64,000 bases of DNA, from positions 20,262,097 to 20,326,096 of the forward strand of contig CM056389.1 of NCBI GenBank assembly GCA_029718625.1. Direction: 5' to 3'. The DNA comes from Synaphobranchus kaupii (taxonomy: Eukaryota; Chordata; Actinopteri; Anguilliformes; Synaphobranchidae). Below, in pieces: positions 13,701-16,700 of this stretch. How positions within the stretch are numbered: position 1 is the first letter of the stretch; every line of letters begins with the position of its first letter. The notes beneath the pieces are model-generated. The model worked only from the letters and a program-made list of their open reading frames with translations, did not search any database and was not told where the DNA came from. Made by a program: the position numbers and the translations under genes.

Positions 13701-16700
13701 TCACCTCGGGCTGGCCGATGGCGGTAAAGAGGGAGCGTATCTCTCGGAGGATGGAGACGGCCAGCTTGCGGGTGGCGGTCAGGCAGGAGCAGAGGAGCAC
13801 CAGGGCCAGGCCCTCCACGGCGTGCAGGACCGGGCAGTGACTGCGCTCCGGAGGGAGCCGCTGCAGAGAGAGCATACCGCGCGTGAGCGTCAGGACCGGG
13901 CAGTGACTGCGCTCCGGAGGGAGCCGCTGCAGAGAGAGCATACCGCGCGTGAGCGCCAGGACCGGGCAGTGACTGCGCTCCGGAGGGAGCCGCTGCAGAG
14001 AGAGCATACCGCACGTGAGCGTCAGGACCGGGCAGTGACTGCGCTCTGGAGGGAGCCGCTGCAGAGAGAGCATACCGCGCGTGAGCGTCAGGACCGGGCA
14101 GTGACTGCGCTCTGGAGGGAGCCGCTGCAGGGAGAGCATACCGCGCGTGAGCGCCAGGACCGGGCAGTGACTGCGCTCCGGAGGGAGCCGCTGCAGAGAG
14201 AGCATACCGCGCGTGAGCGCCAGGACCGGGCAGTGACTGCGCTCCGGAGGGAGCCGCTGCAGAGAGAGCACGTGAGTGAGCGCCAGGACCGGGCAGTGAC
14301 TGCGCTCCGGAGGGAGCCGCTGCAGAGAGAGCATACCGCGCGTGAGCGCCAGGACCGGGCAGTGACTGCGCTCCGGAGGGAGCCGCTGCAGAGAGAGCAT
14401 ACCGCGCGTGAGCGTCAGGACCGGGCAGTGACTGCGCTCCGGAGGGAGCCGCTGCAGAGAGAGCATACCGCGCGTGAGCGTCAGGACCGGGCAGTGACTG
14501 CGCTCCGGAGGGAGCCGCTGCAGGGAGAGCATACCGCGCGTGAGCGCCAGGACCGGGCAGTGACTGCGCTCTGGAGGGAGCCGCTGCAGGGAGAGCATAC
14601 CGCGCGTGAGCGCCAGGACCGGGCAGTGACTGCGCTCTGGAGGGAGCCGCTGCAGGGAGAGCATACCGCGCGTGAGCGCCAGGACCGGGCAGTGACTGCG
14701 CTCCGGAGGGAGCCACTGCAGAGAGAGCATACCGCGCGTGAGCATCAGGACCGGGCAGTGACTGTGCTCCGGAGGGAGCCGCTGCAGAGAGAGCATACCG
14801 CGCGTGAGCGCCAGGACCGGGCAGTGACTGCGCTCCTGAGGGAGCCGCTGCAGAGAGAGCATACCGCGCGTGAGCGCCAGGACCGGGCAGTGACTGCGCT
14901 CTAGAGGGAGCCGCTGCAGGGAGAGCATACCGCGCGTGAGCGTCAGGACCGGGCAGTGACTGTGCTCCGGAGGGAGCCGCTGCAGAGAGAGCATACCGCG
15001 CGTGAGCGTCAGGACCGGGCAGTGACTGCGCTCTGGAGGGAGCCGCTGCAGGGAGAGCATACCGCACGTGAGCGTCAGGACCGGGCAGTGACTGCGCTCC
15101 GGAGGGAGCCGCTGCAGAGAGAGCGCGTGAGTGAGTCTGGCTCTCGGTAATGCAGCGGGAATGTTGCCGTGACGCGCGGAATGTGTCGGCTACCGTCATG
15201 AGCGCGGGTCTTAGTGGGGCTCTGTGCTACAGAGCAGTGGTTCTCAAACTCGGTCTTGGGGAGCCTGTGTATGCTGGCTTTTGTCCCAGCCAATGTCTCT
15301 CTCAATTACGGCGGTTGAACACACGTGTTTAAGTGGTTAGGCTCATTCGCGTTTGCTTTGTCTTGGAATTCTTCATTATCTATGGTTAGTTTTAGTGGCC
15401 AGTGTCTCCCCCAACACTTTGCCTATGCTAGAGTCACAGGTAACATTCTGAAAGTTTACCTTGTGAACATGGCTCTTGGCGGGACTCTGTGCTATAACCT
15501 AACGGAAACATTGAAATAACGCTCAGACAGCGTACCTCGAGGCTGCAGCTCTGTACTATAGTGTAACAGAAACGTTGTTATAACATGCAGAAAGCGTACC
15601 TCATGGCTGCAGCCCTTGGCGGGACTGTGTGTTATAACGTAACGGAAACGTTGTCCTAACGCTCAGACAGCGTACCTCGTGGCTGCAGCTCTTGGCGGGA
15701 CTGTGTGTTATAACGTAACAGGAACATTGTAATAACGCTCAGACAGCGTACCTCGTGGCCGCAGCCCTTGGCGGGACTGTGTGTTATAACGTAACAGGAA
15801 CGTTGTAATAACGCTCAGACAGCGTACCTCGTGGCCGCGGCTCTTGGCGGGACTGTGTGTTATAACGTAACAGGAACGTTGTAATAACGCTCAGACAGCG
15901 TACCTCGTGGCCGCGGCTCTTGGCGGGACTGTGTGTTATAACGTAACAGGAACATTGTAATAATGCTCAGACAGCGTACCTCGTGGCCGCGGCTCTTGGC
16001 GGGACTGTGTGTTATAACGTAACAGGAACATTGTAATAACGCTCAGACAGCGTACCTCGTTGCCGCGGCTCTTGGCGGGACTGTGTGTTATAACGTAACA
16101 GGAACATTGTAATAACGCTCAGACAGCGTACCTCGTTGCCGCGGCTCTTGGCGGGACTGTGTGTTATAACGTAACAGGAACATTGTAATAATGCTCAGAC
16201 AGCGTACCTCGTGGCCGCGGCTCTTGGCGGGACTGTGTGTTATAACGTAACAGGAACATTGTAATAATGCTCAGACAGCGTACCTCGTGGCCGCGGCTCT
16301 TGGCGGGACTGTGTGTTATAACGTAACAGGAACATTGTAATAACGCTCAGACAGCGTACCTCGTTGCCGCGGCTCTTGGCGGGACTGTGTGTTATAACGT
16401 AACAGGAACATTGTAATAACGCTCAGACAGCGTACCTCGTTGCCGCGGCTCTTGGCGGGACTGTGTGTTATAACGTAACAGGAACATTGTAATAATGCTC
16501 AGACAGCGTACCTCGTGGCCGCGGCTCTTGGCGGGGCTCTGCAGGGTGAGTCTCCACTGGGTGAGCAGCTGGAGGAGGAGCCTGAGGGCGGAGTCCAGCA
16601 GGCCCGGGTGTGTGTCCTGCCCCTCCCTCAGCAGGAAGCTGGTGAAGCCGAACAGGACGTCCTCCCGCCAGTCCCACAGGTCCACCAGCAGGCTCTGCAG

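What the first reader, a model, noticed from the sequence alone, without database searches (positions are those of the whole stretch)
13822..15140. 20 tandem, frame-preserving copies of the fry exon 19 acceptor
Seen: the repeat unit is not arbitrary intron DNA. Each 66-bp unit, read on the sense strand, contains a branch-point-like CTCAC about 22 nt before the AG, a pyrimidine tract ending CTCTCTCTGCAG, and then the first 36 or so bases of exon 19. Acceptors lie at 13861 plus multiples of 66, with one 63-bp step, all multiples of 3. The fry frame stays open through at least 19 units (491 codons ending at 13585). Exon 18 ends and exon 19 starts on whole codons. Inference: any of the acceptors could be chosen, inserting n x 22 residues (starting RLPPERSHCPVL, ending MLSLQ) into a linker of furry. 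This would be a length-tunable protein linker generated by a minisatellite.
Basis: partly seen in the sequence, partly recalled or inferred. Interest (0 to 1): 0.88.

Follow-up and report, generated by a model that had tools for sequence, protein, structure and literature searches.

The report
Twenty tandem copies of exon acceptor
In what is likely a deep-sea eel, the fry gene carries 20 copies in a row of the splice signal that starts one of its exons, one of several such repeated exon edges in the gene; splicing probably still uses mostly the copy next to the exon, but use of any other copy would leave the protein readable and merely longer.

Summary
Window 13825-15124 (minus strand) holds 20 acceptor copies (18 steps of 66 nt, one of 63), each with the first 36 nt of fry exon 19, and the frame stays open whichever is used. 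The insertion point lies in a low-confidence loop between two predicted helices of furry, and its length varies among fish proteins (22-41 residues). The array is not alone: the exon 18 donor (same intron), the exon 21 and exon 26 acceptors, and further junctions in the 3' half of the gene and in fryb are repeated in the same way. These are 'mirages', tandem duplications of exon-intron boundaries known from amphioxus. Frame preservation looks like chance: 3 of 8 junction arrays have periods divisible by 3, unit variants are 2 synonymous to 7 non-synonymous, and nine random changes would usually leave no stop. Decoy use at the exon 18 donor or exon 21 acceptor would give stops, so exon-proximal choice is the likely rule. 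No protein with the 22-residue insert was found. I read it as a mirage with mostly ordinary splicing and possible in-frame leakage. The tunable-linker idea is open and testable with RNA, not shown.

The parts
13825..15124 (-). 66-nt minisatellite of the exon 19 acceptor junction: 20 acceptors (19 decoys plus the authentic one), 36 exonic + 30 intronic nt per common unit
13705..13860 (-). fry exon 19 (156 nt, 52 codons, phase 0 on both sides); the authentic intron ends at 13861
16512..16749 (-). fry exon 18; authentic donor GAG|GTACGC after 16512
15455..16535 (-). 76-nt minisatellite of the exon 18 donor junction in the same intron (TRF rows 15485-16535): 14 further donor-like sites between 16436 and 15460, the last one degenerate; use of any of the 14 gives a stop
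13872..15065 (-). 18 donor-like GCG|GTATGC sites, one in each extra unit but the 63-nt one; weak (score 5.1 against a gene mean of 8.1)
7308..8972 (-). 56-nt minisatellite of the exon 21 acceptor junction (exon 7072-7331): 25 upstream AG-bearing copies, use of any of which gives a stop
3649..3935 (-). 45-nt (partly irregular) minisatellite of the exon 26 acceptor junction (exon 3492-3664): 5 upstream copies, 3 keep the frame open
10838..13421 (-). 48-nt minisatellite filling most of intron 19, with 49 [C/T]AG|GT motifs, 40 of them TGTGTCTGTAG|GTCAGT; I saw no exon-edge copy in it

Best explanation
The feature is a minisatellite made of tandem copies of the intron 18/exon 19 acceptor junction of a fish fry gene (a 'mirage'), and splicing is predicted to use mostly the authentic, exon-proximal acceptor at 13860, so that furry would be ordinary in length. 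Shown: the 20 copies, the open frame, and the same pattern at other junctions of this gene, including the donor of the same intron. Inferred: one unit covering the junction was duplicated and then amplified and homogenised by slippage or unequal exchange. Inferred: exon 19 is recognised as a unit with its own donor (introns 18 and 19 are about 2.7 and 2.9 kb), which favours the acceptor nearest that donor and, by the same rule, the exon 18 donor nearest its acceptor. Inferred: the 19 upstream acceptors are decoys with occasional use; because 66 and 63 are multiples of 3 and the insertion point is a loose loop, such leakage would give proteins longer by about 22n residues instead of nonsense, so the array can be tolerated. 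Nothing here shows that the leakage occurs or is regulated.
For: Array and frame. Not alone: 4 of 59 window junctions carry copies; in the 3' half of the gene, junction copies at the donor of the exon for residues 1870-1939 (45 nt x 10), the donor of 1762-1829 (35 nt x 117), the acceptor of 1664-1686 (56 nt x 6) and a small donor case at 1699-1762; in fryb, an acceptor array of 53 nt x 10. Array units span junctions more than random placement predicts: 8 of 48 arrays against 1.53 expected, P = 0.0001; 7 without the flagged one, P = 0.0007. Decoy use elsewhere would be costly: 14 of 14 extra exon 18 donors and 25 of 25 extra exon 21 acceptors give stops. No insert-bearing protein among 6424 candidates; a motif check finds it in 0 of 238 fetched proteins; close relatives read straight across: Anguilla HE|RMSPERSHC, Conger HD|RNLPERSHC. 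No coding constraint in units: variant types 2 synonymous, 7 non-synonymous, 0 stop, where all possible transitions are 23, 42 and 1. Published mirages span exon-intron boundaries and are reported to leave regular mRNA (PMC3087553 passages; PMC3902484 passage). With large flanking introns, sites closest across the exon are favoured (PMC9225289 abstract).
Against: No RNA was available, so acceptor choice is untested. The authentic acceptor is not locally better: 16 of 19 decoys score as high or higher than its 7.7. Local RNA accessibility does not single it out, and at exon 21 the authentic site is less open than the four copies nearest to it (13 of 26 exon 21 sites looked at). PMC9225289 (one section read) reports a general preference for upstream 3' splice sites, which exon definition reduces, so leakage to upstream copies is plausible. 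In human UBC a tandem array of splice sites does give a ladder of isoforms (PMC10809524). Coverage of junctions by arrays shows depletion, not enrichment (4 of 27 against a rotation mean of 14.8 in 1-17000; 4 of 59 junctions against 28.6% of random intronic 24-mers). The FRYL region gave 0 of 18 arrays by the strict rule, and fryb alone is not significant (1 of 3, P = 0.21). The protein database lists cluster representatives, so an insert hidden inside a cluster would be missed, and I saw no S. kaupii protein for this gene copy.
Confidence: 0.75

Rival explanations
1. Length-tunable linker: several of the 20 acceptors are used to a meaningful extent, giving a ladder of furry proteins with about 22n extra residues in a loop, stochastically as in human UBC or under regulation.
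For: All 20 acceptors keep the frame, and 16 of 19 decoys score as high as the real site or higher. In the Conger model residues 732-742 have pLDDT below 50, between helices 706-728 and 745-760, and the junction is at 737/738. Linker length is 22-41 residues in the 111 of 120 fetched fish furry proteins that my pattern matched. 4 of the 7 species I compared show more than one linker length among their models (Sparus 30/32/33/37/40, Esox 27/28/30, Lates 30/40, Oncorhynchus kisutch 28/31; other species with several models were not compared). UBC precedent.
Against: No insert-bearing protein; no frame enrichment among junction arrays; no coding constraint; amphioxus mirages are reported to splice normally. 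The linker isoforms of other fish are database models; I did not see their RNA.
Confidence: 0.15
2. Decoy load: the arrays mainly lower the efficiency of intron 18 removal or promote exon 19 skipping, in proportion to array length; skipping keeps the frame (minus 52 residues).
For: Skipping exon 19 leaves an open 1232-residue segment. In human ABCA7 a 25-nt array that includes the exon 18 donor correlates with skipping of exon 19, and the isoform with one retained unit was put at 2 +/- 1% (PMC5954066 passages).
Against: No RNA; skipping would remove at least two predicted helices, which is unlikely to be harmless (inference).
Confidence: 0.07
3. Assembly artefact: copy number or the array itself is produced by the assembler.
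For: Not testable here without reads; one amphioxus mirage was aberrantly assembled in the genome draft (PMC3087553).
Against: 12 distinct sequences among 18 extra 66-nt units, 8 of 153 pairs identical; many unrelated arrays in the same gene; the host assembly has long contigs (1.5 Gb in 94 contigs).
Confidence: 0.03

Closest known systems
Amphioxus 'mirages' (Adh3, globins BflGb6/BflGb9, troponin C, PGBD5)
   Same: Minisatellite-like tandem duplications of an exon-intron boundary, at 5' or 3' edges, with splice signals in many units (PMC3087553, PMC3902484 passages).
   Different: A vertebrate; 8 junction arrays counted in two fry paralogs; both ends of one intron repeated; up to about 117 copies; one acceptor array and one donor array keep the reading frame open throughout. 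The amphioxus cases have RNA evidence, this has none.
Human ABCA7 intron 18 VNTR
   Same: Array beginning at a splice donor; extra donors are candidates for use (PMC5954066 passages).
   Different: 25-nt unit on the donor side that begins with the GT, and one-unit retention shifts the frame; the fry array is on the acceptor side, with 36 exonic nt per unit.
Human UBC array of dual-specific splice sites
   Same: A tandem array of splice sites at a multiple of 3 (228 nt) that can yield proteins with different repeat numbers (PMC10809524 abstract and one section).
   Different: UBC units are coding, with AG|GT sites whose use was shown by RT-PCR; the fry copies lie in an intron and are not shown to be used.
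Tandem repeats at exon-intron boundaries of human genes in segmental duplications
   Same: Minisatellites at boundaries that can change splicing (PMC2812944 passages).
   Different: On average 30-nt units repeated 4 times, transcript evidence, novel introns; the passages do not describe 20 copies of one acceptor.

Membership tests
Mirage (tandem duplication of an exon-intron boundary) | Minisatellite-like tandem repeat whose unit spans the boundary | tested here: met
   36 exonic + 30 intronic nt, 20 copies
Mirage (tandem duplication of an exon-intron boundary) | Many units carry splice signals | tested here: met
   20 of 20 carry AG and CTCAC; units were cut at the AG, but the regular steps show none is missing
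Mirage (tandem duplication of an exon-intron boundary) | Regular mRNA despite the repeats | not testable with these tools
   No RNA; the protein search without insert is indirect
Mirage (tandem duplication of an exon-intron boundary) | Copy number varies between haplotypes | not testable with these tools
   One assembly only
Length-generating splice-site array (UBC-like) | Period a multiple of 3 and frame open across units | tested here: met
   66/63 nt, 20 of 20 acceptors open
Length-generating splice-site array (UBC-like) | Isoform ladder in RNA or protein | tested here: inconclusive
   No insert-bearing protein found; RNA not available
Coding minisatellite under constraint | Fewer non-synonymous changes than expected | tested here: not met
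   7 of 9 variant types non-synonymous; two or fewer synonymous is expected 39% of the time under random change with weights I chose

The most novel reading that the evidence does not exclude
The exon 19 array is a working length dial: the spliceosome uses a spread of the 20 near-identical acceptors, so one fry allele makes furry proteins with 0 to 19 copies of RLPPERSHCPVL[A/T]LTRGMLSLQ in an inter-helix loop, individuals differ with array length, and a second in-frame dial (VSLVEVVGEHGDEVQ)n sits at a donor in the 3' half of the same gene, in a genome that keeps seeding minisatellites on splice junctions.
Probability: 0.12. Interest if true: 0.85.

Novelty: new member of a known kind. Interest (0 to 1): 0.5.

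Why it matters
Intron 18 offers 15 donor-like sites and 20 acceptors of nearly identical local sequence, so local motif strength cannot decide which is used; RNA from one fish would show how far position alone does. Because decoy use at exon 19 is in frame and at exon 21 is not, the gene carries its own control. The recurrence across fry paralogs (8 of 48 arrays on junctions) would extend mirages from amphioxus to a teleost. My literature searches listed no fish case by title or abstract start; they are word searches of an open-licence library, and a listed paper on intron insertions in ray-finned fishes (PMC3151243) was not read. Such arrays are also a proposed raw material for intron gain (PMC3087553).

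Tried and rejected
Selection for frame: rejected as unsupported. Better local strength or openness of the real acceptor: no advantage. Junctions covered by arrays more than random positions: the opposite. The seed test asks another question: its array list was merged by hand from TRF rows (period 10 or more, 3 or more copies, 4 or more in the 3' half; dinucleotide-like arrays and arrays outside the genes left out), junction arrays were judged by eye and the copy tests, and exon edges outside the window are tblastn hits. Left out of the 8: the donor at 1699-1762 (2 extra copies), FRYL 6831-6910 (2.7 copies), and FRYL 13279-13587 and 21963-23395 (7-8 exonic nt by eye). FRYL 15673-15964 first looked like an acceptor array but reads as a coding repeat inside one exon. 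The array 46676-48395 starts at a donor, but the copies I viewed lack the GT. Solved structures: none. Viral contigs: 0 matches. A survey of another gene family in the genome did not complete. The protein model is of the Conger relative, mean pLDDT 65.2, pTM 0.45.

Full report
What is there. On the minus strand the window carries a fry gene (furry). Thirty coding exons map by tblastn to an Anguilla furry and splice at GT-AG borders into one open segment of 1284 residues; the last exon is cut by the window's end. Between exon 18 (16749-16512) and exon 19 (13860-13705) lies a 2651-nt intron. Its 3' end is a 66-nt minisatellite, 13825-15124, with 20 acceptors, 18 steps of 66 nt and one of 63. Each common unit holds 30 nt of intron end and the first 36 nt of exon 19 with 0-2 differences.

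Where it is from. The own assembly (1.5 Gb, 94 contigs) places the window on C14, and the 9 matches to the unit lie in this array (the tool calls its counts lower bounds). The fryb paralog lies on C3, whose length 126,109,860 equals the longest contig listed for the Synaphobranchus kaupii protein P0007, and P0007 maps exon by exon there, mostly at 90-100% identity. I infer S. kaupii, an anguilliform eel. No S. kaupii protein for the window's own fry copy appeared in the rows I saw (one search lists 120 of 648; one search lists 120).

It is one of a set. A 24-mer across each of 59 window junctions finds near copies at 4: exon 18 donor (12 copies), exon 19 acceptor (19), exon 21 acceptor (26), exon 26 acceptor (5) (exon number = script index + 2, and one script line labels exon 26 otherwise). 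The same intron thus has 15 donor-like sites towards one end and 20 acceptors at the other. In the 3' half of the gene there are a 45-nt x 10 donor array that is also open in frame (VSLVEVVGEHGDEVQ repeated), a 35-nt x 117 donor array, a 56-nt x 6 acceptor array and a small donor case. In fryb a 53-nt x 10 acceptor array is found. In FRYL the strict rule finds none of 18 arrays, with two weaker cases and one young 2.7-copy case.

Two tests that point differently. Arrays fill 62% of intronic DNA at 1-17000, and junctions are covered less often than rotated positions (4 of 27 against 14.8); 28.6% of 1500 random intronic 24-mers have two or more near copies against 4 of 59 junctions. So most junctions are spared. 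But if each array's unit is dropped at random in the gene span, 1.53 of 48 would span a junction with at least 10 exonic nt; 8 do (P = 0.0001; 7 without the flagged one, P = 0.0007). Before FRYL was added the figures were 8 of 30 against 1.13, with none of 20,000 simulations reaching 8. By part: window 4 of 14, 3' half 3 of 13, fryb 1 of 3, FRYL 0 of 18. I read this as arrays seeded on junctions more than chance gives; the array list and the exon edges outside the window are approximate.

Does the frame mean anything? Junction-array periods are multiples of 3 in 3 of 8 cases, all counted arrays in 13 of 48. Among the 18 extra 66-nt units there are 9 variant types: 2 synonymous, 7 non-synonymous, 0 stop. 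Under random change (transition-weighted, weights mine) the chance of no stop is 0.87. A second sense frame is also open. The open frame needs no selection to explain it.

What decoy use would do. With the first donor, 20 of 20 acceptors keep the segment open; with any of the 14 other donors, 0 of 280 combinations do. For exon 21, 25 of 25 upstream acceptors give a stop; for exon 26, 3 of 5 stay open. Exon 19 with one, two or three extra units would be 222, 288 or 354 nt; with all 19, 1407 nt and 417 extra residues; skipping exon 19 is in frame. Local acceptor scores (a matrix from this gene's other sites) are 5.6-8.3 for the array, 7.7 for the real site and 10.8 on average for the gene. Accessibility does not separate the exon 19 sites, and at exon 21 the real site is less open than its four nearest copies. 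Position must therefore decide, if the real site is preferred. A published survey finds that with large introns the sites closest across the exon are favoured, while for 3' sites an upstream preference exists in general and is reduced under exon definition (PMC9225289: abstract and one section). This predicts mostly 13860, with leakage possible.

The protein side. The junction lies in a loop: in the Conger model (41-sequence alignment, mean pLDDT 65.2) residues 732-742 are below 50, between helices 706-728 and 745-760, with the junction at 737/738. The linker is 22-41 residues long in the 111 of 120 proteins that matched my pattern, 9 not matched. Of 7 species compared, 4 have models of more than one length. 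So the loop probably tolerates length change. No protein with the insert was found (6424 candidates, none at E 10 or better; motif in 0 of 238 fetched). An Anguilla model that begins in the intron reads MFPLQ|RMSPERSHC, like the unit's MLSLQ|RLPPERSHC, which suggests that the intron end itself is old.

What it is like. Amphioxus genes carry the same kind of structure under the name mirages; their authors report that regular splicing is not disturbed (PMC3087553 and PMC3902484: passages). Human ABCA7 has a donor array with about 2% one-unit retention (PMC5954066: passages). Human UBC shows that an in-frame array of splice sites can give a ladder (PMC10809524: abstract and one section). My literature searches listed no fish example by title or abstract start; a listed paper on intron insertions in fishes (PMC3151243) was not read, and the library holds open-licence papers only.

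Verdict. A real mirage, new member of a known kind, in a gene rich in them. Ordinary furry from the exon-proximal acceptor is the likely main product. The tunable linker is possible and testable, not shown.

Noticed in passing
window 10838-13421: Intron 19 is mostly a 48-nt array with 49 [C/T]AG|GT motifs, 40 of them TGTGTCTGTAG|GTCAGT: a tandem array that resembles dual-specific or recursive splice sites.
   Followed up: partly
L016 to L009 joined in ascending order, position 65206-69295 (C14): About 117 tandem 35-nt copies of a donor edge (mostly ACCAG|GTAAG in the stretches viewed) after the exon for residues 1762-1829.
   Followed up: partly
L016 to L009 joined, position 62705-63171: In-frame donor array, 45 nt x 10, that would insert VSLVEVVGEHGDEVQ per unit if downstream donors were used.
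   Followed up: partly
L022-L025 joined, position 15673-15964 (FRYL): Coding 33-nt repeat inside one FRYL exon, about nine copies of an 11-residue unit (GS[C/S][G/A]LPHLTPT in most), four with CACAG|GTAGC.
   Followed up: partly
L022-L025 joined, position 6831-6910 (FRYL): A young donor duplication: 30-nt unit, 2.7 copies, about 27 exonic nt, in frame length.
   Followed up: no
window 1-17000 against 17001-41804: Minisatellites fill 62% of intronic DNA in the first stretch and 5% in the second; by a slightly different count the 40-kb FRYL region has about 50% and the 50-kb fryb region about 4%.
   Followed up: partly
window about 15190-15460: Degenerate copies of the exon 18 donor edge lie beyond the regular 76-nt array, so the donor array seems older than its recent homogenisation.
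   Followed up: no
window 53944: A likely alternative first exon, MASQQDSGFFEISIKSLLKSWSG, on the minus strand, as at the start of several fish furry proteins.
   Followed up: no
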